Positions 1 to 32,984 of a stretch of DNA of 64,000 nt are shown in pieces. Within the stretch, counting starts at the first letter, position 1. Every line of letters starts with the position of its first letter. The notes under the pieces were generated by a model. That model had not been told where the DNA came from. It saw only the letters and a program-made list of their open reading frames with translations, and did not search any database. This stretch comes from Sphingobium sufflavum (GTDB taxonomy: Bacteria > Pseudomonadota > Alphaproteobacteria > Sphingomonadales > Sphingomonadaceae): contig NZ_JAJSSH010000006.1 in NCBI RefSeq assembly GCF_021403115.1, positions 179,677-243,676 of the forward strand, in the 5' to 3' direction. The position numbers and the translations under genes were made by a program.

Positions 1-1616
1 AGGCGCGGGGCGAAATTATTCTGGCGGAACTCGGCCGGCGCGGCGTTGATCGCGACATGGCCATAGGCCAGCCCCATGCGCTTCCACTTCGCAATGTCGG
101 CGATGACATGGGCCAGCATCGTCTGGCCCAGCAGGTCGGCGACTTCCGCCTCCTCGAACGCGGCCATGATCGACGCGGGCGCATGGATATTGCCCATGCT
201 GTCGCGCCAACGCAGCAGCGCCTCGAACCCGGTCAGTTCACCCGTCACCAGCGAAACCTTGGGCTGGTAGAAGGCCAGTATGTCGCCGCTCTTGGCCGCC
301 GTGCGCGCCCGCGCGACCATCGCCGCCCGCTCGCGCACCTCGTCCTGCATGCGGCTTTCGAAGATCAGCATCTTGCCCCGCCCGCCATCCTTGGCGGCGT
401 AGAGCGCGATGTCGGCGTGGCGCAGCAGTTCGGACGATTGCTGGCCATGGTCGGGGAACAACGCCGCACCGATGCTGGCCCGGCAATCGACCGGCCCGCT
501 GTCCAGCGAGAAGTCCTGCCGCCTGTTGAGGATCTCCTCGCCCCAGCGGACCAGTTCCTCGCGATTTTCCAGATGGGTGAACAGGATGGCGAACTCATCG
601 CCGCCCAGCCGCGCGACCAGCACGTCCTGCGGCAGGATCGAGCGCAGTTCGTCCGCATAATGTTGCAGCAGCGCATCGCCGGCATGATGGCCCAGCAGGT
701 CGTTCACTTCCTTGAAGTGATCGAGGTCGATCAGCAGCACGCCGACCCGGTGCAGGCATTGCACCGCCGCCGCCAGCGCCTTCTCCAGGCTGGTGTTGAA
801 CAGCAACCGGTTGGCGAGGCCGGTCAGCGGGTCATGCTCCGCGTTCCAGCGTATCTGGTTCTCGACCAGCACCTGCTCGTGAATATCCTCGGTATAGCCA
901 TACCAGCGGATGATTTCGCCCCGGTCGTCGCGGCGCGGATAGCCCTGCGCGCGCATCCAGCGATAATGGCCGTCAACGCACAGCCGCATGCGCACATCGA
1001 ACGGATTGCCCGTGGTCAGCGCCAGCACGATCTGCTCGTTGACATGGGCCAGGTCGCCGGGGTGGGTGACGCTGCCCCATCCCTCGCCCAGCGCGGTTTC
1101 CCGCGTCATGCCCGTCGCCGCCAGCCAGCGATCGGTGACGTCGATGATCCGGCCCATCGGATCGGCGATCCACGGCAGTTGCGGATTATATTCGACGGTG
1201 TAGCGAAGATGCTCCTCGCTCTGGCGCAGGGCGTCGATGGCGTTGCGGTCGGCGGTGACGTCGATCAGCGTGACGATGCCGCAATCGCCCTCGCAATGCT
1301 CCGTCATCCGGCGGACGATGGCGCGAACCCAGTGCACCGCTCCGCCCGGCGTTTCGACCCGGAATTCGGTGGATCGCTGCTGCGGCAGGCCCCTGATGGC
1401 GCGGACCAGTTCCACGATGTCGCGGCGATGTTCCCGCCCGACATGCGCGATGACCTCTGCGAAATCGGCGGTATGCGGCAAGCCGAACTTGGCGGCGCTG
1501 GCATCGTCGAAGGAAAAGCGACCCGTCGAATCGACATTGCACAGCCCCACGCCCGCCGCCGCCAGAGCGTCGTCCACCAGGCCATGATTATGGCCGATGC
1601 CGCTATGGGCGGTCAT
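1..1616 (-). CDS. PAS-GGDEF-EAL cyclic-di-GMP signalling protein (3' end outside window)
   Basis: Reading the minus strand from ATG at 1616 gives at least 538 codons that stay open to the left edge, so the C-terminus is missing. Two PAS-like segments (about residues 10-125 and 145-260, the second with a typical WIADPMGRIIDVTDRW stretch) are followed by a GGDEF domain. That domain has HDPLTGLANR at its start and an intact GGDEFAILF active site. An EAL domain then begins with GFEALLRW. GGDEF domains make c-di-GMP and EAL domains degrade it, and the PAS domains probably sense a cytoplasmic cue. Both catalytic signatures visible here are intact, but most of the EAL active site lies outside the window, so the net activity cannot be predicted. 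No membrane segment is seen. The gene is divergent from the LuxR-type gene at 1856. The 239 bp between them hold no gene and must carry both promoters. Confidence 0.9.
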   Translation of the reverse strand, partial: MTAHSGIGHNHGLVDDALAAAGVGLCNVDSTGRFSFDDASAAKFGLPHTADFAEVIAHVGREHRRDIVELVRAIRGLPQQRSTEFRVETPGGAVHWVRAIVRRMTEHCEGDCGIVTLIDVTADRNAIDALRQSEEHLRYTVEYNPQLPWIADPMGRIIDVTDRWLAATGMTRETALGEGWGSVTHPGDLAHVNEQIVLALTTGNPFDVRMRLCVDGHYRWMRAQGYPRRDDRGEIIRWYGYTEDIHEQVLVENQIRWNAEHDPLTGLANRLLFNTSLEKALAAAVQCLHRVGVLLIDLDHFKEVNDLLGHHAGDALLQHYADELRSILPQDVLVARLGGDEFAILFTHLENREELVRWGEEILNRRQDFSLDSGPVDCRASIGAALFPDHGQQSSELLRHADIALYAAKDGGRGKMLIFESRMQDEVRERAAMVARARTAAKSGDILAFYQPKVSLVTGELTGFEALLRWRDSMGNIHAPASIMAAFEEAEVADLLGQTMLAHVIADIAKWKRMGLAYGHVAINAAPAEFRQNNFAPR

Positions 1617-1855
1617 CGGACAATGGCCCCTTTCCGGGCAAAAGGTCGATTGTGCGAATACATTCTTGGCGGCCTCGACGCCCCCCTTTTGCATCATGGG
1701 AAGCGAATTTGGATCGCTTTTAGAGGGGATTAGCGAACTATTCCTTAATGCTGCGAACGGAATGTAAGGCGGTCGGCCAAATTTCTCCGCCCCCTCTCAA
1801 CCGGACATTAACCGCAAGGGTGCAAGGCTGGACGACGGTCGAGCAAGAGGAAGAT

Positions 1856-2449
1856 ATGTCGCAGGCACTGCACAGCGGGTTTGACCGTATCGCGCCCGAT
1901 CCCGCGGGCACCTTCGTGCGTGTCGCGCCCCTGCTGCTGGACCTGCCCGCGCTGGTGGCCGCCTTTGACGCGGCGCTGGCGCTGGAGGATGCGCGCGGCC
2001 ATCGCTGCTTCGTCCTCGACGGCGACGAGCGGCTGCCGCTCACCCAAAGCCCGGACAGGATTGTCGGGGAAGCGGCCAGCGACACGACATTCCGCATCGC
2101 CGCGCCGGATGGCGAGACTCTTCTCCTCATCATCGACTGCGCCGAATCACCCGACCGTTCGCGCCGCGCCCGGCTGCACCTGCTCGCGACCGTCTATGCC
2201 GCCCATGTCGTGCCGCTGATCGAGGTGGAGGAGACGGATGGCCCCACGCAGGACGATGCCCTTACCGCACGGGAACGCGAATGTCTGCGCCTGCTCCTGA
2301 CCGGCCTGTCCCATCTCGACATCGGCGATGCGCTGGACCTGTCGGCCCCTGCGGTCGGCATCCACCTGCGCCGCGCCGCCGCCCGGCTGGGCGCGGGGTC
2401 GCCCCTCGACGCCTGCGCCATCGCCCTGGCGCGCGGTCTGCTGACCTGA
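1856..2449 (+). CDS. LuxR-type helix-turn-helix regulator without a recognisable autoinducer pocket
   Basis: 197 residues. The start is ATG 1856, seven bases after a purine-rich RBS (agagg); an upstream in-frame ATG at 1748 has none. The last 60 residues form a GerE/LuxR DNA-binding domain: LTARERECLRLLLTGLSHLD, then SAPAVGIHLRRAAARLGAGS and a final IALARGLL, the pattern of quorum-sensing LuxR proteins. The first 130 residues do not resemble an autoinducer-binding domain. They contain no tryptophan, so the two conserved pocket Trp residues of LuxR/TraR are absent, and the segment is shorter than the usual 160 or so. The gene sits 128 bp upstream of a LuxI-type synthase on the same strand and probably controls that cluster. 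Whether it senses a ligand cannot be told; it may act by dimerisation or with another partner. Confidence 0.8.
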   Translation: MSQALHSGFDRIAPDPAGTFVRVAPLLLDLPALVAAFDAALALEDARGHRCFVLDGDERLPLTQSPDRIVGEAASDTTFRIAAPDGETLLLIIDCAESPDRSRRARLHLLATVYAAHVVPLIEVEETDGPTQDDALTARERECLRLLLTGLSHLDIGDALDLSAPAVGIHLRRAAARLGAGSPLDACAIALARGLLT

Positions 2450-2577: not shown

Positions 2578-3423
2578 GTGCTACATCTGATAACGGGTCG
2601 AAATCGCCATCTCTATGAGCCGGAGCTGGATGCGCTGCATCGGGCGCGCAAGGCCGTGTTCGTGGACGAACTGGGCTGGCAACTGACCGTCCGTGACGGG
2701 ATGGAGCGGGACGAATATGACGACGAGCGCGCCATGCACCTCGTCGGCTTCGACGCGGCGCAGGATGTCGCCATGTCCATCCGCGTCCGTCCCGCCGACG
2801 ACCGGTCGATGCTGGTCGATCATTTCTCCCACCATCTGCCGTGCGGCATGCGCGCCGTGGACGACGGGCGGACATGGGAGGTCAGCCGGGGCTTCAGCCG
2901 CGAGCGCGGCCTGAAACGCGCCGTCCTGCGGCGCAAGGCCGCCTGCATGATCGCACCGCTGGAAATGGCGCTGGAGGCGGGCATCGACCGCTATGTCGGC
3001 TTCACCGACGTCCGCCTGCTCGGCATCTATTATCATATCGGCTGGAAGCTGGACCTGCTCGGCGATCCCCAGCCCTATGGCGAGGGGGACGGCGTGGCCT
3101 ATGAGGCGCAGGTGTCCAGCGCCATCGTCCGCGACATTCGCCAGACATGGGGACTGCCCGCGCCCGCCTACAGGGAACTGGACGGGTTGGGCGATGCGCC
3201 GAGCGTCCATGCCGCCGCCGCCGCGCTGGTGGGTGACGACCCCGCCCGCGCCGAACTGATGGCGCCTGCCCCCGCCCCCCTGCTGGTTCCGCCCGGTCGG
3301 GGCAGGCTCGCCGCGCTGGCCCGCGCCCGCGCGCCGTCCCTGCCGGAAACCGGGCCTGACCCCGCGCCGGACGCCATCGTTTCACGACCGGAAAAACGTC
3401 GGACAGCCGTTACGAAATTGTAA
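2578..3423 (+). CDS. LuxI-type N-acyl-homoserine-lactone synthase with C-terminal extension
   Basis: 281 residues from GTG 2578, with aaaagg ten bases upstream; the N-terminus MLHLITGRN is typical of the family. The conserved LuxI residues are present at nearly canonical numbers: R24, F28, W34, E43, D45, D48, R69, then E101 and R104 in WEVSRGFS. LuxI enzymes join an acyl group carried on an acyl carrier protein to the amino group of S-adenosylmethionine and release an acyl-homoserine lactone. LuxI proteins usually have 190-230 residues; here about 75 Ala/Pro/Arg-rich residues of unknown role follow the catalytic core. The next three genes encode an ACP, a lipid methyltransferase and an acyl-AMP ligase, so the acyl donor may be made by a dedicated pathway instead of general fatty-acid synthesis. 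A related N-acyl-amino-acid synthase activity (FeeM-like, also ACP-dependent) is the main alternative. Confidence 0.88.
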   Translation: MLHLITGRNRHLYEPELDALHRARKAVFVDELGWQLTVRDGMERDEYDDERAMHLVGFDAAQDVAMSIRVRPADDRSMLVDHFSHHLPCGMRAVDDGRTWEVSRGFSRERGLKRAVLRRKAACMIAPLEMALEAGIDRYVGFTDVRLLGIYYHIGWKLDLLGDPQPYGEGDGVAYEAQVSSAIVRDIRQTWGLPAPAYRELDGLGDAPSVHAAAAALVGDDPARAELMAPAPAPLLVPPGRGRLAALARARAPSLPETGPDPAPDAIVSRPEKRRTAVTKL

Positions 3424-3427
3424 ATTT

Positions 3428-3467
3428 TCGGGGGATACGTCCTCCGCAAACCCATCCCCGGATTTTT
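3428..3467 (+). terminator. Hairpin plus T-run between the AHL synthase and ACP genes
   Basis: TCGGGGGAT (3428-3436) can pair with ATCCCCGGA (3454-3462) with one mismatch, and five T follow at 3463-3467. This is the shape of a modest intrinsic terminator or attenuator. It lies only five bases after the synthase stop codon and just before the RBS of the ACP gene, so it could lower expression of the three downstream genes relative to the synthase. Confidence 0.4.
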
Positions 3468-3478
3468 GGAGAAGCAGA

Positions 3479-3766
3479 GTGACGGCAACGGATTCGCACC
3501 CCCATGGCGCGGGCGAGATAGAGACATGGTTCAGGGATTATATCGCGAAGTTGGTCGGCTTGCCCGTGGAGCAGGTCGCGGGCAGCGCCGATTTCGATAG
3601 TTTCGGCATCGATTCCGTGCAGGGCGTCGACATGGTGACGGCGCTGGAGACGTGGCTGGGCCTGACCGAAGACCTCCCGCTGGAATATGTGTTCGAGGCG
3701 GACAGCATTACCGAGGCGGCGCAGCGCATTTCCCTCGCCCTCCCCACCGGCCCGTCGCCCGCATGA
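3479..3766 (+). CDS. Stand-alone acyl carrier protein
   Basis: 95 residues from GTG 3479, preceded by ggag. It is a single acyl-carrier domain with the phosphopantetheine attachment motif DSFGIDSVQ (the Ser of IDS is the attachment point). Helix I reads ETWFRDYIAKLVGL and helix III contains YVFEADSITEAAQRI. Once loaded by a phosphopantetheinyl transferase it would carry an acyl chain as a thioester. It is not the general fatty-acid ACP by context. Its stop codon overlaps the start of the methyltransferase gene (ATGA at 3763), which itself overlaps the acyl-AMP ligase gene, so the three proteins are translationally coupled and probably interact. The expected loading enzyme is the ligase at 4647 and a plausible user is the synthase at 2578. 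Confidence 0.92.
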   Translation: MTATDSHPHGAGEIETWFRDYIAKLVGLPVEQVAGSADFDSFGIDSVQGVDMVTALETWLGLTEDLPLEYVFEADSITEAAQRISLALPTGPSPA

Positions 3767-4650
3767 CGGAGGCTTTCCCCCTGCAACCGGGCGGCTCCGC
3801 CGATGCCATCCGCCACCATTATGACGTGGGCAATGATTTCTACGCGGCCTGGCTCGACCCCACCATGGTCTATTCCTGCGCGCTGTGGGACGGGCCGGAG
3901 GATCAGGCCCCGCTGGAGGAAGCCCAGCGGCGCAAGCTGATCCACCACGCCCGCGCCATCAAGGCCGCGCCAGGCATGAATATCCTCGACATCGGCTGCG
4001 GCTGGGGCGGCCAGTTGCGTATGCTGGTGGAGGAGTTCGGCGTCACCGCCTGCACCGGCCTGACGCTGAGCGAGGAGCAGGCCGCGCATGTCCGCGCACT
4101 GGGGCTGGACGGCGCGAGCGTCGAACTGGTCAACTGGCACGACTATGCGCCCGCGAAGCCGTTCGACGGCATCATCTCCGTCGGCGCGTTCGAGCATTTC
4201 GCCCATCCGACCCAGAGCGAGGACGAACGCCGCGCCACCTATCGCCGCTTCTTCCAGTCCTGCCATGACTGGACGGCGGGGCGCGGGCGGCTGTCGCTCC
4301 AGACCATCGCCTATGGCACCATGCAGGCGGCGCAGGCCAATCCCTTCATCACCGGCGACATCTTCCCCGCCGCCGAACTGCCGACGGTGGAGGACATCGT
4401 GGTCGCCAGCCGCGGGCTGTTCCGCATCCTGCTGCTGCGTGACGACGGGCTGGACTATGCCCGGACCTGCACCCTCTGGGCGCAGCGGCTGCGCACCGCG
4501 ATGGCGGAGAGCCGGGCGGGCGACGATGCGGAGCTTGCCCAACGCTATCACCGCTATCTGCGCCTCTCGGCGGCGGGTTTTGCGATGGGGCGTATCGGGC
4601 TGCTGCGGATCGTCTTCGATCCCATCGCCCCGGCACGGGGAGCGGCATGA
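3763..4650 (+). CDS. Cyclopropane-fatty-acid-synthase-like SAM methyltransferase
   Basis: 295 residues; ATG 3763 overlaps the ACP stop. The N-terminal signature HYDVGNDFYAAWLDPTMVYS and the SAM-binding loop ILDIGCGWGG are those of the CFA synthase / mycolic-acid cyclopropane synthase family (PF02353-like). GAFEHF near residue 145 corresponds to the segment carrying the bicarbonate-binding Glu in that family. The protein is short like the mycobacterial enzymes and lacks the N-terminal domain of the E. coli enzyme. Members transfer a methylene or methyl group from SAM to an unsaturated acyl chain. Because the gene is coupled to an ACP and an acyl-AMP ligase, the substrate may be an ACP-bound chain and not membrane phospholipid. 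Whether it forms a cyclopropane, a methyl branch or something else cannot be read from sequence. Confidence 0.88.
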   Translation: MTEAFPLQPGGSADAIRHHYDVGNDFYAAWLDPTMVYSCALWDGPEDQAPLEEAQRRKLIHHARAIKAAPGMNILDIGCGWGGQLRMLVEEFGVTACTGLTLSEEQAAHVRALGLDGASVELVNWHDYAPAKPFDGIISVGAFEHFAHPTQSEDERRATYRRFFQSCHDWTAGRGRLSLQTIAYGTMQAAQANPFITGDIFPAAELPTVEDIVVASRGLFRILLLRDDGLDYARTCTLWAQRLRTAMAESRAGDDAELAQRYHRYLRLSAAGFAMGRIGLLRIVFDPIAPARGAA

Positions 4651-6416
4651 CGCCTGACGCGGCCATGGTCCCACCCAACACGATCCTCGACGTGCTGCGC
4701 GCCCATGCGGCGGAGCGGCCCGGCCATCCCGCGCTGATCTTCGACGATGGCAACGGGCCGACCGCCCGGCTCAGCTATGGCGAACTGGCGGAGGCTGTGC
4801 GCGGCCTTGCGGGCACCCTCGCCGCGCAGGGACTGGGAAACAGGCCGGTCGGCCTGTTGTTCGGTCCGGGCATCGACTTCATCGTCACCTTCCTCGCCTG
4901 CCTCACCATCGGCAGCATCGCCGTGCCGCTGGCCCCCGTCGGGCGCCGGCGCGAGCGGGTGCCCAACCTGCTGCCCGTGGTGCGCGACTGTATGCCCGCC
5001 GCCATGATCCTGGATGCGGGTATGGCCGTGCAATATGGCGGGCTGGCGGAGGCGCTGGCGAAGATGGACGTGGCCTATCTGGAACATGAGGCGCTGGCCC
5101 CCGCGCCACCCTCCACCATCCTGCCTTCGCCGCCCGGTTCCGACGATGTGGCGGTCCTGCAATATACCTCCGGTTCGACCAGCGCGCCCAAGGGCGTGAT
5201 GATCACCCATGGCAATATCATCGCCAACCAGCGGATGATCCGCCGCACCTTCGGCCATGACGACCGGTCGAACTTCGTGGGATGGGCACCGCATTTCCAC
5301 GATCAGGGCCTGTTCGGGAACATCCTCCAGCCGCTCTACCTCGGCGCGACCTGCGTGCTGACCGCACCCGCCACCTTCGTTCGGCGACCGCTCGTCTGGC
5401 TGGAACTGATCGACCGTTACCGCGCCCACACAAGCGGCGGCCCCAATTTCGCGTTCGAGCTGTGCATTGAGCACGCCACGCTGCGCGGCCTGCCCGCCGT
5501 GAACCTGAGTTGCTGGAAGGTCGCCTTCAACGGCGCAGAGCCGATCCGTGCGCGCAGCGTGGAACGGTTCGCGGAGAGTTTCGCGCCCGTCGGCTTCGCG
5601 CCGGAGGCGTTCTTTCCCTGCTATGGGCTGGCGGAATCCACGGTGGTGACCGCCTGCGGCCCGCGCGACAAGGGACCGGTGCTGCGCCGGGTGGATGTCC
5701 AGACGCTGGGCGACGGCCATGTGCTGCCCGCCGACCCGCGCAAGCCCGTCCTCGCGGAAATATGCTGTGGCCCCGCGATGGAGGAAAGCGAGCTATGGGT
5801 CGTCGACCCTGAACGGCATGTCGTCGCCGCGCCCGGCGATGTCGGCGAAATCTGGGTCGCCGGGCCCCATATCGGCCGGGGCTACTGGAACCGGACGGAG
5901 GAAAGCCGGGCGACCTTCGGCGCGCTGATGCTCGACGGGCGCGGCCCCTATCTGCGCACTGGCGACGTGGGGTTCATGATGCCGGAGGGGCTGTATGTCG
6001 TCGGCCGGATCAAGGATCTGCTGATCGTGCGCGGTCGCAACTTCGCGCCCAATGACATAGAGCAGATCTGGACCGACGTGACCGGCCATGCGGGACAGGC
6101 GACCGCCGCCGCCTTTCAGGTGGCGCACGGTGAAACCTCCCATGTCGTGCTGGTCGCGGAGATTGAGCGTGGCCTGCGCACGGCGGAGGGGCTGGATGGC
6201 CTGATCGCCGATTATGGCGCGCAGGTGCGGCGGATGGGGCTGGACCGGCTGGACCTTGCCATCACCGATCTGATCGTCGTGTCACCCGGCGGCATTCCGC
6301 GCACGACCAGCGGCAAGGTGCGCCGCGCCGCGACCCGGACGATGCTGGAGAAGGACGAACTGCCCGTGATCGGCACGTCCGGCCCCCTGATGGCCCGGCG
6401 GACGGAGGAAGCCTAA
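4647..6416 (+). CDS. Fatty-acyl-AMP ligase (FAAL-like, ANL superfamily)
   Basis: 589 residues; ATG 4647 overlaps the methyltransferase stop. ANL core motifs are clear: P-loop YTSGSTSAPKGVM, then HFHDQGLFGNILQPLYLGA and GGPNFAFELCI, which match the FAAL subgroup (HDMGLIGGILQPLY and SGGPNFAYDLC in known members). YGLAESTV, the hinge region RTGDVGFM...GRIKDLLIVRGRNFAPNDIE and a C-terminal PRTTSGKVRR supplying the catalytic Lys follow. FAALs activate a free fatty acid with ATP and pass it from acyl-AMP to an ACP without CoA. Here the recipient is presumably the ACP at 3479. It is the last gene of the plus-strand cluster and ends 14 bp from the end of the convergent TonB-receptor gene. FACL-type CoA ligase activity is the alternative; the gene context favours FAAL. 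Confidence 0.9.
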   Translation: MTPDAAMVPPNTILDVLRAHAAERPGHPALIFDDGNGPTARLSYGELAEAVRGLAGTLAAQGLGNRPVGLLFGPGIDFIVTFLACLTIGSIAVPLAPVGRRRERVPNLLPVVRDCMPAAMILDAGMAVQYGGLAEALAKMDVAYLEHEALAPAPPSTILPSPPGSDDVAVLQYTSGSTSAPKGVMITHGNIIANQRMIRRTFGHDDRSNFVGWAPHFHDQGLFGNILQPLYLGATCVLTAPATFVRRPLVWLELIDRYRAHTSGGPNFAFELCIEHATLRGLPAVNLSCWKVAFNGAEPIRARSVERFAESFAPVGFAPEAFFPCYGLAESTVVTACGPRDKGPVLRRVDVQTLGDGHVLPADPRKPVLAEICCGPAMEESELWVVDPERHVVAAPGDVGEIWVAGPHIGRGYWNRTEESRATFGALMLDGRGPYLRTGDVGFMMPEGLYVVGRIKDLLIVRGRNFAPNDIEQIWTDVTGHAGQATAAAFQVAHGETSHVVLVAEIERGLRTAEGLDGLIADYGAQVRRMGLDRLDLAITDLIVVSPGGIPRTTSGKVRRAATRTMLEKDELPVIGTSGPLMARRTEEA

Positions 6417-6429
6417 ACCCGGAAAGCCG

Positions 6430-8631
6430 TCAGAACTGCCGCGTCACCGTCACGCCATAGGTGCGCGGCGGGCCATAGGCGGTGGTCCGCAGCACACCCA
6501 TAGCCGTGCGGTCATCGCGATAGGTTTCATAGCTCTGGTCGGTCAGATTCTCGACCCAGACGGCGGCGGTCCAGCCAGTCCAGCGGGCGCTGAGTCGCGC
6601 GTTCAGCAGGGTGCGCGCGCGGCCCCGGAACCGCTCCGAATTGGTCGGGTCGAAATAGACGGAGGACTGGTGATTGGCCTCCACCCGGCCTGTCACGCTG
6701 CCGAAACCGGTGCGATGGGCATATTCGGCGGCGCCATGGGCGGTAAAGCGCGGCGCCCCGGTCAGCGCCTTGCCCGCGCAGTCACTGGCCCCGCCTCCTT
6801 CCGAAAGCGGCACCGCGCACTGGGCGAAGCGATCATATTTCGCATCGGCATAGCCCGCCGCGCCTTCCAGCCGCACACCGTCCAGCGGACGCGCCGTCAC
6901 CTCCACCTCGAATCCGTCGATCGACGCCCGCCCCGCATTGCTCAGTGCGGTGCCCGCCCCGGTGATCTGCGCGACCTGCAAATCGGCATAGTCGGTGTGG
7001 AATCTAGTCAGCGCCAGGGTCAGGCGACGATCCAGCAGGTCCGCCTTCACCCCGCCCTCATAGGTGGTGGCATGTTCCGGCCCGGCGGTCAGCCCGTTGG
7101 CGGACGCGGCCAGATCGACGTTGAACGCCGCACTCTTGAACCCGCGCGCGACCCGGCCATAGAGGCGCACGCCTGGCGCGGCGGCATAGGTCAGCGAAAC
7201 CGTGGGCGACACGTCATGGTCGACGCTGCGCCCGGCAAAGGCAATGTCGGGCAGGTCCAGCATGGCGAAGATACCGGTCTCGTCATCCTGCACGAAACGG
7301 GCGCTCTTGCGCTCATAGGTATAGCGCAGCCCGGCGGACAGGGTCAGCCGCTCGGCGAGGCGCCAGTCGACGGAGCCGAACGCGGCATAGCTGCGCGTCG
7401 CCACCCGGCCGCGCGTGGTCAGCTGGGGTGCGCCGGGGATGCCCAGCCCCATGCCGATCGCCAGCGTTCGGTCGGTATGGGTAATCTGGTCGAGCAGATA
7501 GACTCCCGCCAACCAGTTCAGCCGATCCCCGGCCTTGCCATTCAGGCGCAATTCCTGGCTCCACAATTCACTGCGGTCGCCAAACAGGTCGGCGGTCAGC
7601 AGGTCGGCCTGCCGTTGGTCATCGTCGAGCGATGCGGCATAGCGCGACTGGCGATACGCGCTGATGCTGGTCAGCACCATCTCGCCCAGCGTGGCGACGG
7701 CGGTCAGCGAGACACCGGCAATGTCACGGCGCAAGGCGTTAGGCCGGTTATTGTCGATCTGGCGCGGCGGCAACGCGCCGGGCGCGCCCGGCAGGCCGAT
7801 GTCGGTGGCGGAGAAGAAGCCCGGCGTACCCCGGTCGCGCAACCCATCCGTGCGCAGCGTGACAGTCAGGCGGTCGGACGGCGCGAAGGCCAGCGCTCCG
7901 CGCCACGAAAACAGGTCGAGACCGTCTGCATCCCGCCCCCCGGACACATGCCGGTAAAAACCGTCGCGGCTGGCATAGCCCAGCGCGATCCGCCCGGTCA
8001 GCGCATCGCCCGCCAGCGGCCCGGACAGGGTCGCCTGCGTGCGGACGAGGCCGAAATTGCCGGCCTCCACGCGCGCGCTGCCCGTCAGGTCGCGGGTCGG
8101 CGCGGCGCTGCTCAGCGTCAGCACGCCCGCAATCGTGTTCTTGCCGAAAATCGTGCCCTGCGGCCCGCGCAGCACCTCGACCTGGGCAATGTCGAGCAAT
8201 TCCTGATTATAGGCTTCGGGCCGCCCCACATAGACGCCGTCGACATAGACGCCGACGCCGCTTTCCACACCGATGTTGCGGACCAGCGTGGCGATACCGC
8301 GGATCGCGATCTGCCCTTGTAACTGTCCGCCGATGCCGCCGCTGAACGCCACATTGGGCACGCTGCCGGTCACATCGGCAAAGCTGGTGATGCGCTCGTC
8401 CTCCAGTCCGCGCGCGGTGAGGATCGACAGGGAGGCCGGCACGTCGAGCGCCGACTCCGGCACCTTGCGCGCCGTCACGATGATGGCGTCGGGTTCCGCG
8501 ATACGATCCGGCGCGGCGTCCGCCGCCAGTACCGGCGTGGCGAAGGCCCCGGACCAGACAGTCGCCAGGACAACCGCATGGAGGGCCGGGATGCGGGACA
8601 GCGCCTGAAATCGGGGCAGGGAAAGGGTCAT
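6430..8631 (-). CDS. TonB-dependent outer-membrane receptor
   Basis: 733 residues with an N-terminal signal peptide ending near VLAADA. The plug domain begins at DAIIVTARKVPESALDVPAS and includes VEVLRGPQGTIFGKNTIAG. The barrel ends in the aromatic C-terminus YGVTVTRQF expected for outer-membrane insertion. Receptors of this type take up siderophores, carbohydrates or other bulky ligands using TonB energy. The plug is of the FecA/CirA-like sphingomonad class with many uncharacterised substrates. It lies convergent to the acyl-AMP ligase gene, so it is not in the same operon. A role in taking up the cluster product or another lipid-like molecule is only inference. No Fur-like box was seen in front of it; two direct repeats lie 20-40 bp upstream of the start. 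Confidence 0.93.
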   Translation of the reverse strand: MTLSLPRFQALSRIPALHAVVLATVWSGAFATPVLAADAAPDRIAEPDAIIVTARKVPESALDVPASLSILTARGLEDERITSFADVTGSVPNVAFSGGIGGQLQGQIAIRGIATLVRNIGVESGVGVYVDGVYVGRPEAYNQELLDIAQVEVLRGPQGTIFGKNTIAGVLTLSSAAPTRDLTGSARVEAGNFGLVRTQATLSGPLAGDALTGRIALGYASRDGFYRHVSGGRDADGLDLFSWRGALAFAPSDRLTVTLRTDGLRDRGTPGFFSATDIGLPGAPGALPPRQIDNNRPNALRRDIAGVSLTAVATLGEMVLTSISAYRQSRYAASLDDDQRQADLLTADLFGDRSELWSQELRLNGKAGDRLNWLAGVYLLDQITHTDRTLAIGMGLGIPGAPQLTTRGRVATRSYAAFGSVDWRLAERLTLSAGLRYTYERKSARFVQDDETGIFAMLDLPDIAFAGRSVDHDVSPTVSLTYAAAPGVRLYGRVARGFKSAAFNVDLAASANGLTAGPEHATTYEGGVKADLLDRRLTLALTRFHTDYADLQVAQITGAGTALSNAGRASIDGFEVEVTARPLDGVRLEGAAGYADAKYDRFAQCAVPLSEGGGASDCAGKALTGAPRFTAHGAAEYAHRTGFGSVTGRVEANHQSSVYFDPTNSERFRGRARTLLNARLSARWTGWTAAVWVENLTDQSYETYRDDRTAMGVLRTTAYGPPRTYGVTVTRQF

Positions 8632-14550: not shown

Positions 14551-15306
14551 TTATCCGTCCCGCCGCCGCATCAGATAGACATCCATGATCCACCCATGCC
14601 GCGCGCGCAGCGCGGCGCGGGTTTCCACGATAGCCGCCGCCACATCCCCCAGCGGCCCCTCGACCAGCGCCTCCTGCGCCATGCCCAGATAGGCGCCCCA
14701 CCAGATATGCACGCCCTCCGCTGGCAACGACCCGAACGCGCAGCCGCCATCCAGCATCACGACCACTGTATCCGCACCCTCTGGCCAGCCTCCTTCCCGC
14801 AAGCGCCGCCCGGTAGTGATGACGACCGGCGCAGCGAGGCTGTTGAGCGGGATGGCATGGGCCGCCGTCAGCGCCTGTACGCTGGTGATGCCCGGCACGA
14901 CATGCAGGCGCAGCGCCATGCCGTCCGCGCGCAGCCGTTCCGCGATCCGCAACGTGCTGTCGTAGAGCGACGGGTCGCCCCACACCAGCAACGCCAGCGC
15001 GCCGCCGCCCGGCAGGTGCACGGCAATCTGCTCCGCCCATGCCGCAGCAATGGCGTCATGCCAGTCGTGCACCGCCTCGATATAGGGGGGTGTCGGGGAA
15101 CGGGTCGGCAGGTCGAACTCCACCACCCGCGTCGCCTCGCTGACATTCGCCGCGCACAGCGACCGGCGCAGGTCGATCAGGTCCGACTTCGCATCGCCCT
15201 TGCGCGGCAGCAGGATCAGGTCCGCGCCGCGCATCGCCCGAATCGCGGCCATGGTCAGATGGTCGGGATTGCCCGTACCGATACCGATCAGATGCAGGTC
15301 GATCAT
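14551..15306 (-). CDS. cobF: Precorrin-6A synthase (deacetylating), CobF
   Basis: 251 residues from ATG 15306, which overlaps the cobB stop; the N-terminus is [17 protein letters not shown], the SAM-binding loop of the tetrapyrrole methylase family. Other family features are VWGDPSLYDSTLRI and VVPGITSVQALTAAHAIPLN. CobF methylates C1 of precorrin-5 and releases acetate, giving precorrin-6A in the aerobic pathway. Its presence with cobG and cobK marks the oxygen-dependent route. It is the last gene of the riboswitch-controlled operon. Confidence 0.93.
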   Translation of the reverse strand: MIDLHLIGIGTGNPDHLTMAAIRAMRGADLILLPRKGDAKSDLIDLRRSLCAANVSEATRVVEFDLPTRSPTPPYIEAVHDWHDAIAAAWAEQIAVHLPGGGALALLVWGDPSLYDSTLRIAERLRADGMALRLHVVPGITSVQALTAAHAIPLNSLAAPVVITTGRRLREGGWPEGADTVVVMLDGGCAFGSLPAEGVHIWWGAYLGMAQEALVEGPLGDVAAAIVETRAALRARHGWIMDVYLMRRRDG

Positions 15307-16631
15307 GCGGCCTCCGCCCCCCGCTGCGGCGCGACGAAGTGGAAGAAGGTGCCCGCCACCCTGCCGCGCCACGATCCCGTCTCCGCCTGCGTCACGCCGT
15401 CCGGGTCCATGACATGGGCCAGCGGTGCGTCGGGCTGCTCCACCACCGTCGAATAATGAAACTCATGGCCGCGCAGCACCGCGCCTGCCGCATGGCCCAC
15501 CGCCGGGGCCAGCAGCCGCGCCTGCCGATAGCCCAGATGCAACCGTCGGTCGGCATGACTCGTCACCAGCCCCAGCAGCCCGGCCATGCGATGGCGCGCA
15601 CCCTGCGCGTCGATCAGCCCCTCGCCCAGCGCCATATAGCCGCCACACTCGCCATAGACCGGGCGGTCCTCCGCATGGCGGCGCAGCCCCGCCCGGAAAG
15701 CCTCCGCCGCCGCCAGCCGCCCGGCATGCAATTCGGGATAGCCGCCGGGCAGCCAGACCAGATCGGCCTCCGCTGCGGGCGCCTCATCCGCCAGCGGCGA
15801 GAAAGGCAAGATTTCCGCCCCCGCCCGCCGCCACGCCGCCAACAGGTGCGGATAGGTAAAGGAGAAAGCCGCATCCTGTGCCCATGCGATACGCTGCGCC
15901 GGGGGCGCTATCGCCATCCCCTCCCCGACAGGCCGCGCACAGCCACCGGCCGCCGCCCGGATCGCCGCCAGATCGACATGGTCGCGCACAAAGGCGGCAT
16001 AGCGCGTCAATATCGCGGCCAAATCCCCATGCTCACCCGCCTGCACCAGCCCCAGATGCCGTTCGGGCAGGCTGAGGTCGGGCCGCCGGGGCAGCGCGCC
16101 CAGCACCGTCAGCCCCGCCGCCGCCATGCCATCGCGCACCAGCCGCTCATGCCGGGGGCTGGCGACCCGGTTCAGGATCACGCCCGCAAAGGGCAGGTCG
16201 AGGCGCAGCCGCCGGAACCCTTCCGCCACCGCCGCCGCCGACTGCGCCTGTCCCGACACATCGACCACCAGCACCACCGGCCATCCCATGCGCCGGGCGA
16301 TGTCCGCGCTGGCACCATTGCCGCTCGCCCCGTCCCGCGCCGCGCCGTCGAACAGGCCCATCGCCCCTTCCGCCAGCACCATGTCGGCGTCCTGTCCCTG
16401 TGCCGCGATGGCGTCCAGCAACGCACCGTCCATCGCCCAGCTATCGAGGTTGAACGACGCCCGCCCGCAGGCCGCGCGGTGAAAGGCGGGGTCGATATAG
16501 TCCGGCCCGCTCTTGAACGGCTGCACCGCCAGCCCATCCTCGACCAGCGCGCGGCACAGGCCCAGCATCACCGTCGTCTTGCCGCTGCCCGATGCGGGCG
16601 CGGAGATCAGCAGGCCCGGCGTCGGCCTCAT
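15303..16631 (-). CDS. cobB: Hydrogenobyrinate a,c-diamide synthase, CobB
   Basis: 442 residues. A P-loop [17 protein letters not shown] opens the N-terminal ATPase domain; [16 protein letters not shown] and EGAMGLFDG are family signatures. The C-terminal glutaminase-like domain has the nucleophile Cys in [13 protein letters not shown]. The enzyme uses ATP and glutamine to amidate the a and c side chains of hydrogenobyrinate before cobalt insertion by CobNST, none of which are in this window. ATG 16631 overlaps the end of cobM by four bases. Confidence 0.95.
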
Positions 16632-17413
16632 TCGGTCCGCCCGATAAAGGGGGAGTCCGCCGACTGCGGACGGAAACGCCGGTCATAGCCCGCCGCATAC
16701 AGGCTGCTCTCCGCGAAGTCGGCGCTGTCCAGCACCCGCCCGACCAGGATCAGCGCCGTCCGCTCCATGCTGCCCGCCACCGCATCCTCCACCGTGGAGA
16801 GTGTCGCGCGGACGATCCGCTGGTCCGGCCAGCTTGCCCGCCACACCACCGCGACCGGGCAATCCGCGCCATAATCGGGCGTCAGGTCCGCGACGACCGT
16901 GGCAAGATTATGCACCGACAGATGGATGGCCAGCGTCGCGCCGGTCGCGGCGAACCGGGTGAGCGTCTCCTTCTCCGGCATGGAACTGGCGCGCCCCGGC
17001 GTCCGGGTCAGGACCAGCGACTGGCCGATGGTCGGCAGCGTCAGTTCCGCTTCCAGCGCGGCGGCGGCGGCGGCAAAGGCGGGCACACCGGGCGTCACGG
17101 TAAAGGGGATGTCCAGCGCGCGCAGGCGGCGAAGCTGCTCCCCCATGGCGGACCAGACCGACAGGTCGCCGCTGTGCAACCGGGCGACATCCTGCCCGGC
17201 ATCATGCGCCGCCGCGATGGCGGCGATGATGTCGTCCAGCGCCATCGACGCCGTGTTCACGATCCGCGCACCCGGCGGGCAATGGTCGAGGATGGCGGCG
17301 GGCACCAGCGACCCGGCATAGAGGCACACTGGGCTGGCGGCGATCAGGTCGCGGCCCCGCAGGGTCAACAGGTCGGGCGCGCCGGGTCCGGCGCCGATGA
17401 AATGCACGGTCAT
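16628..17413 (-). CDS. cobM: Precorrin-4 C11-methyltransferase, CobM
   Basis: 261 residues with the SAM-binding loop [13 protein letters not shown] at the N-terminus, followed by the CobM/CbiF signature [13 protein letters not shown], then [11 protein letters not shown] and [15 protein letters not shown]. It methylates C11 of precorrin-4 to give precorrin-5, directly before CobF. Its start overlaps the cobE stop (ATGA) and its stop overlaps cobB. Length is normal for the family. Confidence 0.95.
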
Positions 17414-17805
17414 GACTGGGTTCCTTGGGCACTGGGTTGCGCGGCAGCCTGCGCAAGGGCGCAGGTCGCCATCCGGTCGGGCGCGATATGGCGGGTGGTG
17501 AGCAGGCGCGCGCCGGGTCCGGCGGCGGCCAGCGCCACCGCCTCCGCCACGCTGCCCGTATTCCGCGCGGCGAGGCTGGCGGCGGATCGGGTGGACGTCG
17601 CCACCCCCTCCAGCGCCGCCGCCTCCACGGCGATAAGGGGCAGGCCGAGCGTTTCGGCCAGCGACGCGACATGCACCGCCTTGTCGGCGGGCGCGGCCAG
17701 CGCGGACACGGCGGGATGCCCGGCCTGCGCCGCCTGCAGCGCATCGGCCAGCGACGCCTGCGCCGCCCCGGAACGAAAGCCGAAACCCGCCACGATCCGG
17801 CTCAC
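17410..17805 (-). CDS. cobE: CobE / CbiG C-terminal-domain cobalamin protein
   Basis: 131 residues. The start is taken as GTG 17805, which forms a GTGA overlap with the cobL stop; a GTG at 17820 in the same frame is an alternative. The protein has the CbiG-C / CobE pattern: [19 protein letters not shown] at the N-terminus, then [20 protein letters not shown] and a final [19 protein letters not shown]. CobE is required for aerobic cobalamin synthesis; its exact role is unsettled. Overlaps on both sides place it firmly in the operon. Confidence 0.88.
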
Positions 17806-19010
17806 AGCGTCACGCTCCACTGCACCAGCGGATAATGCGCCTTCCACCCGCGCCGCGTGCCGAGCGGCGCCGCCTCCGCCAGGTCGATACGCAACAGGCT
17901 GCCCCCCTTGTCGCCATGCCACTGCGCCAGCACCGCTTCCGACTCCAGCGTCACCGCGTTGGCGACCAGCCGCGTGCCGGGCCTGAGCACGGCCCACAGC
18001 GTCTCCAGTAGCGCGTCGTTCAGCCCGCCGCCGATGAACACCGCATCGGGCAGCGCCTGTCCCGCCAGCGCATCGGGCGCGCGTCCCTCGACCACCGCCA
18101 GCCGGTCGGCGCCCAGCGCCCTCGCATTGTCGCGCGCCCGCGCCGCCCGCGCCGCATCCGCCTCGAATCCCGTCGCCTGCATGGCGGGATGGGCCAGCAG
18201 CCACTCGATCGCGATCGACCCCGACCCTGTGCCAATGTCCCACAGGCGCTCGCCGGGGCGCGGGGCGAGGGCGGACAGGGTCAGCGCCCGCACCGGCCGC
18301 TTGCTGATCTGCCCGTCATGTTGGAACCACTCGTCAGGGCGGCCCGACGCCAGCTGTAGGATCGCCCCCTCCCCGGCACACTCGATCCCAACTGTCACGA
18401 GGTTGGTTATGTTGGTATGTTGCAGCCCCTCCGCCGTCCCGGAACGCACCCGTTCCCGCGGCCCGCCCAGCGCCTCCAGCACCGTCAGCGTGGACGCCCC
18501 GAACCCCTGCTCCACCAGATAGTGCGCCAGATCCGCCACCGCCGCCCCATCGCGCACCAGCACCAGCACCCGCCGCCCCAGCGCGAGATGAGGCCGCAGG
18601 CGAGAGAGCGGCGCGGCATGCAGGCCTAGGCAGACCGTATCTTCCAGTGACCAGCCCAACCGCGACGCCGCAAGGCCAAAGGTCGATGGCGCGGGATGGG
18701 CGATCCATTCGTCCCGGTCCAGATAGCGAGTGACACTGCTCCCCGCCCCGAACCAGAAGGGATCGCCCGACGCCAGCAGCACGACCCTGCGCCCCCGTTC
18801 CGCCAGCAGCGGGGCGATGCCCGCGTCGAACGGCACTGGCCATGCCCGGCTATCGCCTTTAAGGGGCGGGAGCAGGCCGAGGTGCCGGGTCGCGCCGATC
18901 ACCAGCTCGGCGCGGTCCAGCGCATCGCGCGCCGCAGCGGACAGCCCGTCGAGGCCGTCCTCGCCAATGCCGATGATACTGAGCCAGGGAGGTGCGGGAG
19001 TTTCAGTCAT
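17802..19010 (-). CDS. cobL: Precorrin-6Y C5,15-methyltransferase (decarboxylating), CobL
   Basis: 402 residues from ATG 19010; an in-frame ATG at 19070 is possible. The N-terminal half is a CbiE-like methylase ([32 protein letters not shown]). The C-terminal half is a CbiT-like methyltransferase with SAM loop [15 protein letters not shown]. Together they methylate C5 and C15 and decarboxylate the C12 acetate side chain of precorrin-6B, giving precorrin-8X. The ATG overlaps by two bases with the ATG of cobK on the other strand (a shared CATG). The upstream cobJ gene ends 732 bp away, with cobK antisense in between. Confidence 0.94.
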
Positions 19011-19767
19011 GGCCCAGATCCCCAATATCCTGATTTTGGGCGGCACGACGGAGGCAAGCGCACTGGCCACAGCGCTGGCCGGACGGCGCCTGCACGCGAC
19101 GCTCAGCTATGCGGGCCGCACCGCGCAGCCACGGGCGCAGCCGGTGCCGATCCGCATCGGCGGCTTTGGCGGGGTGGAGGGACTGGCCGACTATCTGCGT
19201 CGCGAAGCCATCACCCATCTGGTCGATGCCACCCATCCCTTTGCCGCGACGATGAGCGCCCATGCCGTGGCCGCGGCGGCGCAGGGCGGCACGCCCCTCA
19301 TCGCCCTCACCCGGCCCGCATGGGCGGCGCAGCCCGGTGACCGATGGGCGTCGGTGGCGGACATGGACGCGGCGGTCGCGGCGCTGGCCGGTCCCGCCCG
19401 CCGCGTGATGCTCGCGCTGGGCCGCATGCATGTCGACCGCTTCGCCGTCCAGCCGCAGCATCATTACCTGCTGCGCTTCGTGGACCGCGCCGACACGCCG
19501 CCCGCCCTGCCCGATCATCATGTCATCGTGGATCGCGGCCCCTTCACCGTCGACGGCGACATCGCCCTGATGCGGGCGCATCGCATCGACCTGATCCTCG
19601 CCAAAAACGCCGGGGGCACGGGCGCTGAGGCGAAGCTGCTGGCCGCCCGCACGCTCGGCCTGCCAGTCCTGCTGATCGACCGGCCCATCCCGCCCGACCG
19701 CCCGACCGTCCATGATGTGGCGGCGGTTCTCGACTGGATCGATCATGGCGCGGATCGCGGCGTATAG
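19009..19767 (+). CDS. cobK: Precorrin-6A reductase, CobK, on the strand opposite to its operon
   Basis: 252 residues from ATG 19009, with cgggag ten bases upstream inside the cobL reading frame. The N-terminal nucleotide-binding segment is ILILGGTTEASALATALAGR; HLVDATHPFAATMSAHAV and LILAKNAGGTGAEAKL are CobK family signatures. It reduces precorrin-6A to precorrin-6B with NADPH. All other cob genes here run on the minus strand. cobK fills the space between cobJ and cobL in antisense, sharing CATG with the cobL start and overlapping the cobJ 3' end by 25 bp. It cannot be expressed from the riboswitch transcript and needs its own promoter, presumably within cobL. Confidence 0.93.
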   Translation: MAQIPNILILGGTTEASALATALAGRRLHATLSYAGRTAQPRAQPVPIRIGGFGGVEGLADYLRREAITHLVDATHPFAATMSAHAVAAAAQGGTPLIALTRPAWAAQPGDRWASVADMDAAVAALAGPARRVMLALGRMHVDRFAVQPQHHYLLRFVDRADTPPALPDHHVIVDRGPFTVDGDIALMRAHRIDLILAKNAGGTGAEAKLLAARTLGLPVLLIDRPIPPDRPTVHDVAAVLDWIDHGADRGV

Positions 19768-20507
19768 AGGATCGGCGCGCCGGGCCGTGCGATCAGGCGC
19801 GTCTGGCTGGACCCGACGATCACCATCGTCCGCATGTCCGCCATCTCCAGCACCGCCTCGCCCAGCGTGACGATGCGAAGCTGCTCCTGCGCCGTCGCCA
19901 CCGCGCGGGCGAACAGGATCAGCCGCTCGTCGCCGCAGGTCTCGCGCAATATCTCCAGCACCCGGCCAAACCCCTCCGGCCGCGCCTTCGACCGGGGGTT
20001 GTAGAAGGCCATGGCGAAATCGGCCTCCGCCGCCAGCCGCAACCGCCGCTCGATCAACGCCCAGGGCTTCAGATTGTCCGACAGGTTGATCGCGCAGAAA
20101 TCATGGCCCAGCGGCGCGCCCGCCCGCGCGCTGGCGGCCAGCATCGCGGTGATGCCGGGCAGCACGCGAATGTCGAGGGCACGCCACTCCACCGGTCCGG
20201 CCTCCAGCGCCTCGAACACGGCCGACGCCATGGCGAAGACACCCGGATCGCCCGACGACACCACCACCACGCGTCCGCCCGCCGCCGCGAGGGACAGGGC
20301 ATGGGCCGCCCGGTCCAGTTCCACCCGATTGTCCGACGCATGCAACGCCAGCCCGGTGCGCGGCGCGATCCGCGCGACATAGGGGATATAGCCGATGACG
20401 TCCGTCGCCTCGGCCAGAGCCGCCGTCACCTCCGGCGTCACCAGCCCCTCGTCGCCCGGCCCCAGTCCCGCGACCGCGATCCAGCCCGCGCTCTGGCCAA
20501 CGGTCAT
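19743..20507 (-). CDS. cobJ: Precorrin-3B C17-methyltransferase, CobJ
   Basis: 254 residues from ATG 20507, overlapping the cobI stop (ATGA). The SAM loop reads VAGLGPGDEGLVTPEV; VGYIPY-type sequence (VIGYIPYVARI), VVSSGDPGVFAMASAVFEAL and FYNPRSKARP are CobJ/CbiH features. It methylates C17 and contracts the ring of precorrin-3B to form precorrin-4. The 3' end overlaps cobK on the opposite strand by 25 bp. Confidence 0.95.
   Translation of the reverse strand: MTVGQSAGWIAVAGLGPGDEGLVTPEVTAALAEATDVIGYIPYVARIAPRTGLALHASDNRVELDRAAHALSLAAAGGRVVVVSSGDPGVFAMASAVFEALEAGPVEWRALDIRVLPGITAMLAASARAGAPLGHDFCAINLSDNLKPWALIERRLRLAAEADFAMAFYNPRSKARPEGFGRVLEILRETCGDERLILFARAVATAQEQLRIVTLGEAVLEMADMRTMVIVGSSQTRLIARPGAPILYTPRSAP

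Positions 20508-28559: not shown

Positions 28560-32984
<4,425 letters not shown>

What the first reader, a model, noticed from the sequence alone, without database searches (positions are those of the whole stretch)
2578..6416. Self-contained acyl-signal locus: LuxI-type synthase, ACP, CFA-synthase-like enzyme and acyl-AMP ligase
Seen: a LuxI-type protein with all core catalytic residues, followed by a stand-alone ACP, a PF02353-like methyltransferase and a FAAL-type ligase, the last three coupled by 4-bp overlaps. Known: LuxI enzymes use acyl-ACP, FAALs load free acids onto ACPs, CFA-type enzymes add a methylene or methyl group to acyl chains. Inference: the ligase loads an acid on the dedicated ACP, the methyltransferase modifies it, and the synthase makes an unusual (cyclopropyl or branched) acyl-homoserine lactone or N-acyl product. 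Ordinary quorum systems draw on general fatty-acid ACP; a private loading and tailoring pathway would be new to my knowledge.
Basis: partly seen in the sequence, partly recalled or inferred. Interest (0 to 1): 0.87.

Follow-up and report, generated by a model that had tools for sequence, protein, structure and literature searches.

The report
LuxI with private acyl-tailoring cassette
In Sphingobium and relatives a gene of the quorum-sensing signal-synthase family lies in one conserved cluster with its own fatty-acid-ligase-type, carrier-protein and cyclopropane-synthase-type genes, which are predicted to hand the synthase a specially modified fatty chain, so that the cell would likely make a signal outside the standard set.

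Summary
Confirmed: LuxI (2578-3423), a stand-alone ACP (3479-3766), a CFA/CMAS-family enzyme (3763-4650) and a FAAL-type ligase (4647-6416), the last three joined by 4-bp overlaps. The cluster is larger: an HTH LuxR (1856-2449) whose Pfam-invisible N-domain is predicted to be a shortened AHL-receptor-like fold, a PAS-GGDEF-EAL gene, and a TonB receptor (6430-8631). ACP, CFA, FAAL and receptor occur in 10 of 10 distinct loci of this LuxI clade (99/95 support) and in 0 of 8 loci of its nearest relatives, within the stretches held. LuxI-less relatives of the trio exist in Pseudonocardia, Rhodococcus and Thalassospira, with a desaturase, a P450 and a thioesterase-type hydrolase; in 8 of 8 LuxI loci tested no match to that hydrolase was found. 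I infer that LuxI replaced it as off-loading enzyme of a private acyl-ACP line and would make a cyclopropyl or methyl-branched acyl-HSL. The chemistry is untested. Against it: LuxI lacks the basic residues that dock fatty-acid-synthase ACP, and the cassette could make a separate lipid that LuxI merely regulates. The papers listed by my searches show no description of this arrangement.

The parts
1..1697 (-). PAS-GGDEF-EAL protein, divergent from luxR, runs off the window start
   Evidence: PF00990 4e-43, PF08447, PF00563; found upstream on the opposite strand in 9 of 10 clade A loci (next to luxR in 3, with the TonB receptor between in 6) and in 8 of 8 clade B loci
1856..2449 (+). LuxR-type regulator, 197 aa: GerE HTH plus a short N-terminal domain predicted to have an AHL-receptor-like or GAF-like fold
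2578..3423 (+). LuxI-type acyl-homoserine-lactone synthase, 281 aa, GTG start, variable C-terminal extension
   Evidence: PF00765 81.8 bits; invariant core columns; only PF00765 match in its genome
3479..3766 (+). stand-alone acyl carrier protein, 95 aa, phosphopantetheine serine in GIDS (codon 3614-3616)
   Evidence: PF00550; GIDS invariant in 6 of 6 aligned; best solved match Asl1650, 3.5e-11
3763..4650 (+). CFA/CMAS-family SAM-dependent enzyme, 295 aa, without the N-terminal domain of full-length CFA synthase
   Evidence: PF02353 203.8 bits; 43-48% to three cassette enzymes, 30% to the genome's own full-length CFA synthase
4647..6416 (+). fatty acyl-AMP ligase (FAAL) type enzyme, 589 aa
   Evidence: PF00501; nearest solved structures are of the FAAL kind, 1.5e-106 downward
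6430..8631 (-). TonB-dependent outer-membrane receptor, convergent with the ligase
   Evidence: PF00593 and PF07715; in 6 of 6 other genomes its best match is the cluster's receptor, 51-55%, against at most 37% for any other full-length match
3763..3766 (+). ATGA stop/start overlap ACP-CFA
   Evidence: a 4-nt overlap in 9 of 10 loci
4647..4650 (+). ATGA stop/start overlap CFA-FAAL
   Evidence: in the window only (1 of 10)

Best explanation
A FAAL-ACP-CFA gene cassette, likely acyl-tailoring, lies in one conserved cluster with a LuxI-type signal synthase, and the LuxI likely acts as its off-loading enzyme, predicted to move a modified acyl chain from the private ACP onto S-adenosylmethionine to give an unusual acyl-homoserine lactone. 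Steps: (1, inferred) FAAL activates a free, probably unsaturated fatty acid as acyl-AMP and loads it on the ACP; (2, inferred) the CFA-type enzyme adds a SAM-derived carbon at the double bond, giving a cyclopropyl or methyl-branched acyl-ACP, with a P450 perhaps oxidising it further in some species; (3, inferred) LuxI, in clusters where no thioesterase is found, transfers the chain to SAM; (4, inferred) the product, or its acid precursor, crosses the outer membrane through the linked TonB receptor and acts on the short LuxR and on c-di-GMP turnover by the GGDEF-EAL protein. Shown by sequence: gene content, order, overlaps, single-clade distribution, and absence of the trio from the nearest relatives.
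For: Trio plus TonB receptor in 10 of 10 distinct clade A loci (window, L035, L036, L107-L112, L123; the receptor is incomplete in B90A), one clade with 99/95 support. The close FAAL is in the same 7 of 94 same-genus genomes as the LuxI; in a 397-genome family sample no other genome has it. Stop/start overlaps: LuxI/ACP 7 of 10, ACP/CFA 9 of 10. LuxI-less desaturase-ACP-CFA-P450-hydrolase-FAAL sets in Pseudonocardia, Rhodococcus and Thalassospira, the Pseudonocardia hydrolase being PF00975 Thioesterase; no match to their hydrolases or desaturases in 8 of 8 clade A loci tested. The CFA enzyme is nearer to those of the cassettes (43-48%) than to the genome's own full-length CFA synthase (30%). 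NCBIfam matches the ACP to PKS models only, not to a fatty-acid ACP model. This LuxI is the genome's only PF00765 match. 15 further LuxI rows (one of them L035) share a contig length with a CFA row.
Against: No chemistry was done. LuxI lacks the basic residues of the fatty-acid-ACP docking helix (5 clade A rows seen; motif of PMC4234381), as acyl-CoA users do, and its nearest relatives work without a linked ACP. A luxI gene next to a biosynthetic cluster often regulates it rather than taking part (recalled). The Gln in place of the bicarbonate-binding His (10 of 10) leaves the CFA product open. No matched gene supplies the double bond. The P450 found in 4 of 8 loci is only 27-29% identical to the Pseudonocardia cassette's P450, so it need not be the same part. 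By solved-structure profile the ACP is only slightly nearer to a mycolic-acid PKS ACP (3.6e-5) than to fatty-acid ACPs (from 1e-4). The LuxR seems to lack the segment with the usual AHL contacts (inferred; contacts recalled). The CFA/FAAL overlap is not conserved.
Confidence: 0.47

Rival explanations
1. Two units side by side: LuxR-LuxI make and sense an ordinary acyl-HSL, which switches on FAAL-ACP-CFA; that cassette makes a separate modified lipid, exported and taken up again through the TonB receptor.
For: LuxI with the GGDEF-EAL neighbour exists without the trio in 8 of 8 clade B loci; the trio exists without LuxI in other bacteria; LuxI lacks the basic ACP-docking residues.
Against: No match to the cassettes' release hydrolases in 8 of 8 clade A loci tested, though an unrelated release enzyme is not excluded; LuxI and ACP genes overlap in 7 of 10; the genome has no second LuxI match.
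Confidence: 0.32
2. The LuxI-like enzyme is an N-acyl synthase for another amine (amino acid or polyamine), FeeM-like in use though LuxI-like in sequence; the product is a lipid or metallophore taken up through the TonB receptor.
For: FeeM binds an ACP (title in the reference list of PMC11631085; own ACP in its cluster recalled); the linked TonB receptor matches a siderophore-receptor model, below its cut-off (171.5 against 223.5 bits); the LuxR has no PF03472 match.
Against: The protein matches PF00765 and acyl-HSL synthase structures, with no FeeM profile match at E 0.01; the LuxI core residues are invariant.
Confidence: 0.1
3. An environmental-lipid sensor: the TonB receptor imports an outside fatty acid, which FAAL, ACP and CFA convert and LuxI turns into a signal, comparable to coumarate-dependent signalling by RpaI.
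For: The receptor is co-inherited with the trio and was not found in clade B stretches; FAALs act on free acids (recalled); no desaturase match in the cluster.
Against: No ligand is known for the receptor; TonB receptors are very numerous in these genomes (95 matches at 1e-40 over 7 genomes), although only the cluster's own is close.
Confidence: 0.1

Closest known systems
Mesorhizobium japonicum R1-I1-crotonase circuit (PMC10470506; passages read)
   Same: An acyl-tailoring gene lies beside luxI and is needed for the unusual signal 2E,4E-C12:2-HSL; alphaproteobacterial.
   Different: The paper puts that LuxI with acyl-CoA users; no dedicated ACP, FAAL, CFA-type enzyme or TonB receptor is described in the passages read.
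BjaI / RpaI acyl-CoA-dependent LuxI enzymes (PMC4234381; passages and section 6 read)
   Same: Nearest solved structures to this LuxI profile (5w8c 'Autoinducer synthase', BjaI by recall; 6wn0 '4-coumaroyl-homoserine lactone synthase'); docking helix without the basic residues of ACP users; p-coumaroyl-HSL depends on an acid:CoA ligase (PMC10470506 passage).
   Different: The ligase here is FAAL-type, a kind that hands acids to carrier proteins (recalled), and an ACP is present; on the tree the clade lies apart from BjaI and RpaI.
Sphingobium 'luxI solos' (Gan et al. 2015, PMC4288048; passages read)
   Same: The paper's table lists one unpaired luxI each in S. chlorophenolicum NBRC 16172 and L1 and in S. 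indicum B90A; two of these strains carry this cluster (L039, L122). It reports a truncated LuxR-like gene upstream of solos in other Sphingobium strains.
   Different: The paper screened with PF03472, which would miss the short LuxR; 'acyl carrier' and 'AMP' have 0 occurrences in its main text. I did not check that its solos are these genes.
LuxI-less desaturase-ACP-CFA-P450-hydrolase-FAAL sets (Pseudonocardia alni pPaSha1, Rhodococcus opacus pRho-G13, Thalassospira marina pCSC3H3)
   Same: Same ACP-CFA order, with FAAL and a P450; CFA 43-51%, FAAL 37-42% to the window.
   Different: They have a desaturase and a thioesterase-type hydrolase and no LuxI match in the stretch held; product unknown to me.
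JamABC and polyyne FAAL-desaturase-ACP systems (recalled, not read)
   Same: A FAAL loads a dedicated ACP and the acyl chain is modified while bound to it.
   Different: Tailoring is desaturation or acetylenation and the chain goes to PKS/NRPS or a thioesterase, not to LuxI.
FeeM/FeeL N-acyl amino acid synthase with own ACP (recalled; a reference title seen in PMC11631085)
   Same: GNAT-type N-acyl synthase with a dedicated ACP.
   Different: FeeM acylates tyrosine; no FeeM profile match here at E 0.01.

Membership tests
LuxI acyl-HSL synthase (PF00765) | Profile match above the curated cut-off | tested here: met
   81.8 bits against 24
LuxI acyl-HSL synthase (PF00765) | Core residues (recalled set R24, F28, W34, D45, D48, R69, F84, E101, R104) | tested here: met
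   all nine in the window protein and invariant in 23 aligned sequences, F at 83
LuxI acyl-HSL synthase (PF00765) | Makes an acyl-HSL from SAM | not testable with these tools
   needs assay or mass spectrometry
Acyl-ACP-using LuxI (motif of PMC4234381) | Basic residues in the ACP-docking helix | tested here: not met
   the K/R and R of LasI and TofI are G/S/D and H/G in the 5 clade A rows printed; ordinary alphaproteobacterial LuxI rows printed there lack one or both too, so the motif does not settle the substrate
LuxR AHL receptor (PF03472 + PF00196) | GerE HTH | tested here: met
   39.2 bits in the window; 10 of 11 members at E<=1
LuxR AHL receptor (PF03472 + PF00196) | Autoinducer-binding domain by profile | tested here: not met
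   no PF03472 match at E<=1 in 11 of 11 members
LuxR AHL receptor (PF03472 + PF00196) | Autoinducer-binding fold | tested here: inconclusive
Fatty acyl-AMP ligase (FAAL) | Closer to FAALs than to CoA ligases | tested here: met
   FAAL-kind structures 1.5e-106 to 2.4e-52, first plain CoA-ligase structures about 1e-23; NCBIfam fatty-acid--AMP ligase models 1e-106 to 1e-77, below their cut-offs
Fatty acyl-AMP ligase (FAAL) | Loads ACP and not CoA | not testable with these tools
   needs assay
Cyclopropane synthase family (PF02353) | Profile match and SAM-binding motif | tested here: met
   203.8 bits; GCGWG kept
Cyclopropane synthase family (PF02353) | Bicarbonate-site residues Cys, Glu, His, Tyr (recalled) | tested here: inconclusive
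   Glu and Tyr kept; Cys is Ser in 8 of 10; His is Gln in 10 of 10, but also Gln in the genome's own full-length CFA synthase
LuxI-less ACP-CFA-FAAL cassette | ACP next to CFA, with FAAL nearby, all homologous | tested here: met
LuxI-less ACP-CFA-FAAL cassette | Desaturase and thioesterase-type hydrolase | tested here: not met
   no tblastn match at 1e-4 to two desaturases and two hydrolases in 8 of 8 clade A loci tested (L109 and L111 not tested)

The most novel reading that the evidence does not exclude
A LuxI has been rewired to serve as the release enzyme of a FAAL-loaded, CFA-modified private acyl-ACP line, making a cyclopropyl acyl-homoserine lactone whose supply and outer-membrane uptake are independent of general fatty-acid synthesis, sensed by a shrunken LuxR that domain scans miss.
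Probability: 0.35. Interest if true: 0.87.

Novelty: new variant of a known kind. Interest (0 to 1): 0.72.

Why it matters
LuxI enzymes are understood as taking acyl chains from general fatty-acid or CoA metabolism. A LuxI with its own ligase, carrier and tailoring enzyme would link quorum sensing to FAAL/ACP natural-product chemistry and would give signals that standard AHL biosensors and mass lists could miss. It would also give some so-called LuxI solos of Sphingobium (pollutant degraders, recalled) a likely substrate path and a hidden LuxR partner, both directly testable.

Tried and rejected
Rejected: the trio as a chance neighbour (10 of 10 against 0 of 8). Rejected: the CFA-type gene as the cell's full-length CFA synthase (a separate copy lies on contig C36). 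Rejected: FeeM membership by profile. Considered and dropped as proof: the His-to-Gln change as evidence against cyclopropane formation, since the genome's own CFA synthase has Gln as well. Considered and dropped: an operator repeat upstream of luxR and luxI (23-nt pair at 1786 and 2475, 74% identical); the upstream regions of relatives printed show no obvious shared copy, judged by eye only. The basic-residue motif was tried as a test of ACP against CoA use and does not set ordinary alphaproteobacterial LuxI apart, so I do not lean on it. FAAL neighbourhoods of three family genomes and of two of the three same-genus genomes with a distant FAAL (L138-L142) held no CFA match. The LuxI trees do not resolve where the clade joins the ACP-type and CoA-type enzymes. 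Paper searches whose listings showed no description of this arrangement: 15 of 24 papers listed; 12 of 15 listed; some searches sought precedents. I judged them by title and start of abstract, with passages read in five papers only (PMC4288048, PMC10470506, PMC11024222, PMC11631085, PMC4234381); only open-licence PMC papers are held, so absence there is weak evidence. A script pattern for other ACPs of the genome found none and was not repeated.


Full report
OBSERVATION. The window lies in a 4.43-Mb genome (37 contigs) at G000:C34:179677-243676. The four genes are real and correctly placed: LuxI PF00765 5.7e-23, ACP PF00550 9.2e-9, CFA/CMAS PF02353 4.4e-60, adenylating ligase PF00501 5.5e-61. 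The ligase is FAAL-like: its best 15 solved-structure rows score 1.5e-106 to 2.4e-52, six of them named as AMP or adenylate ligases (that the other top rows are FAALs is recalled), whereas the first plain CoA-ligase structures score about 1e-23. Overlaps of four bases join ACP to CFA (3763-3766) and CFA to FAAL (4647-4650). The LuxI is the only PF00765 match of its genome; three places with PF03472 lie elsewhere in it.

THE CLUSTER IS LARGER. Upstream is a 197-aa LuxR-type gene (1856-2449) with a GerE HTH and no PF03472. Divergent to that is a PAS-GGDEF-EAL gene. Downstream and convergent is a TonB-dependent receptor.

DISTRIBUTION. I searched with the LuxI in 94 same-genus genomes (7 with a match at E<=1e-30), 397 family genomes (9 at E<=1e-30), 296 order genomes (103 at E<=1e-3, of which 3 score over 100 bits) and named genome contigs with a 23-member alignment (54 loci). 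The FAAL search in the same 94 genomes at E<=1e-80 gave 10; 7 are the LuxI carriers, with the gene 1.2-1.4 kb downstream (50-52% identity in the 6 others), and 3 are genomes without this LuxI, at 39-40%. In the 397-genome family sample at E<=1e-90 the window's own genome was the only one with the close FAAL; 3 others had 34-43% matches.

TWO GROUPS. Ten distinct loci then form clade A: window, L035, L036, L107, L108, L109, L110, L111, L112 and L123 (Sphingobium sp. TomMM15). ACP, CFA, FAAL and TonB receptor are present in 10 of 10; in B90A the receptor gene is incomplete, with an IS6100 beside it. The PAS-GGDEF-EAL gene is in 9 of 10, not in the B90A stretch; it adjoins luxR in window, L035 and L036, and in the other 6 the receptor (in some also a P450) lies between. 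The LuxR gene is in 10 of 10, counting L035, where it was found by ORF clustering and not by tblastn. Eight distinct loci of nearest relatives (clade B: L040-L045, L116, L118; 41-50% LuxI identity) have PAS-GGDEF-EAL in 8 of 8 and show no ACP, CFA, FAAL or TonB receptor match in 8 of 8 within the stretch held. In L045 only about 1.2 kb downstream of LuxI is held; in L041 no LuxR was found. A careful tree of 57 LuxI rows puts clade A on one branch (99/95; 99% of 200 bootstrap trees). I left out 24 of the 81 rows of the first tree (long branches and near-repeats) to build it; the first tree gave the same clade at 95. Clade B is not one clade (0% of bootstrap trees). The other loci (L046-L088) hold no trio in the stretch held; four have one weak FAAL- or CFA-like match alone. 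Further support: 16 of 79 LuxI rows (the last 6 of 85 were not entered), the window and L035 among them, share their longest-contig length with a close CFA row, against 0.27 on average in a jittered control.

COUPLING. In 7 of 10 clade A loci the LuxI stop overlaps the ACP start (TGATG); in 9 of 10 the ACP stop overlaps the CFA start; the CFA/FAAL overlap is in the window only. The TonB receptor moves (downstream in window, L035 and L036; upstream in the others) yet stays linked. In 6 of 6 other genomes searched the cluster's receptor is the best match (51-55%), the next being at most 37%, apart from a 133-residue piece in the B90A genome.

ORIGIN OF THE TRIO. Plasmid records show ACP-CFA-FAAL without LuxI. 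Pseudonocardia alni, Thalassospira marina and Rhodococcus opacus (unannotated, by tblastn) have desaturase-ACP-CFA-P450-hydrolase-FAAL; Polaromonas JS666 has FAAL, desaturases, ACP, CFA and PKS genes among transposases. The Pseudonocardia hydrolase is PF00975 Thioesterase; the other two are its homologues at 33-34%. In 8 of 8 clade A loci tested there is no match to the desaturases or hydrolases; a P450 gene is present in 4 of 8 (L035, L107, L122, L123), but at 27-29% identity to the Pseudonocardia one, so common origin with it is not shown (L109 and L111 were not put into this test). The window CFA is 43-48% identical to the enzymes of three of these sets and 30% to the genome's own full-length CFA synthase. 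My reading: an acyl-ACP cassette joined a pre-existing LuxR-LuxI-GGDEF/EAL unit once, and LuxI took the place of the thioesterase. The single joining is inferred from the tree; the replacement is inferred from gene content.

THE ENZYMES. The ACP keeps GIDS in 6 of 6 aligned. NCBIfam matches it to PKS models only. Against solved structures its profile fits Asl1650 best (3.5e-11), then an ACP 2n98 (5.6e-7) and a mycolic-acid PKS ACP (3.6e-5); fatty-acid ACPs follow from 1e-4 (E. coli 7e-4), so only the first gap is large. The CFA-type enzyme lacks the N-terminal domain of full-length CFA synthase and so has the build of mycobacterial CMAS enzymes, which act on carrier-bound chains (recalled). 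Its bicarbonate-site His is Gln in 10 of 10, as in the genome's own CFA synthase, so cyclopropane against methyl or methylene stays open. The LuxI lacks the K/R and R of the fatty-acid-ACP docking helix in the 5 clade A rows printed (motif from PMC4234381 section 6). This counts against use of general AcpP; it leaves acyl-CoA or a different kind of ACP.

LITERATURE. The listings show no paper on a luxI with linked ACP, FAAL and CFA genes (titles and abstract starts; some lists were cut). The nearest precedent is the Mesorhizobium R1-I1-crotonase circuit, where a linked tailoring gene is needed for the signal (PMC10470506, passages).

VERDICT. The biochemical reading is plausible and specific but untested. 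On re-checking I lowered its probability from 0.50 to 0.47 and raised the side-by-side rival from 0.30 to 0.32, because the P450s are not shown to be the cassette's and the ACP type is less clear than I had first written. I score it as a new variant of a known kind.

Noticed in passing
L143, L144, L146 (Pseudonocardia, Rhodococcus, Thalassospira plasmids): A desaturase-ACP-CFA-P450-hydrolase-FAAL set without LuxI, in two phyla and on plasmids; its product is unknown to me.
   Followed up: partly
L046 2049-6826: A distant LuxI (35%) with a PF03472 LuxR and a PhyH dioxygenase also has a TonB receptor (41% to the window's) beside it, without an ACP, CFA or FAAL match.
   Followed up: no
L122 4138-6669 (S. 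indicum B90A pSRL2): The cluster's TonB receptor gene is incomplete next to an IS6100; a piece matching its C-terminal end lies on another contig of that genome.
   Followed up: no
window 1-2449; L035-L045, L107-L111, L116, L118, L123: A PAS-GGDEF-EAL gene lies on the opposite strand upstream of luxR-luxI in both clades (17 of 18 distinct loci; in 6 of them the TonB receptor lies between), suggesting an old link to c-di-GMP.
   Followed up: partly
L040-L044: In clade B the luxI unit lies between a purL-like gene and mraZ/mraW-type cell-wall genes in the five loci compared, a seemingly fixed chromosomal site.
   Followed up: no
window 15303-20915: Genes on the minus strand matching cobalamin biosynthesis (CobB-like amidotransferase, three tetrapyrrole methylases).
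   Followed up: no
window 28560-31739: An AcrB-family RND efflux protein of 1059 aa; the genes next to it were not scanned.
   Followed up: no
window 1786-1808 and 2475-2497: A 23-nt direct repeat, 74% identical and ending in ACCGGACAT in both copies, lies before both luxR and luxI.
   Followed up: partly
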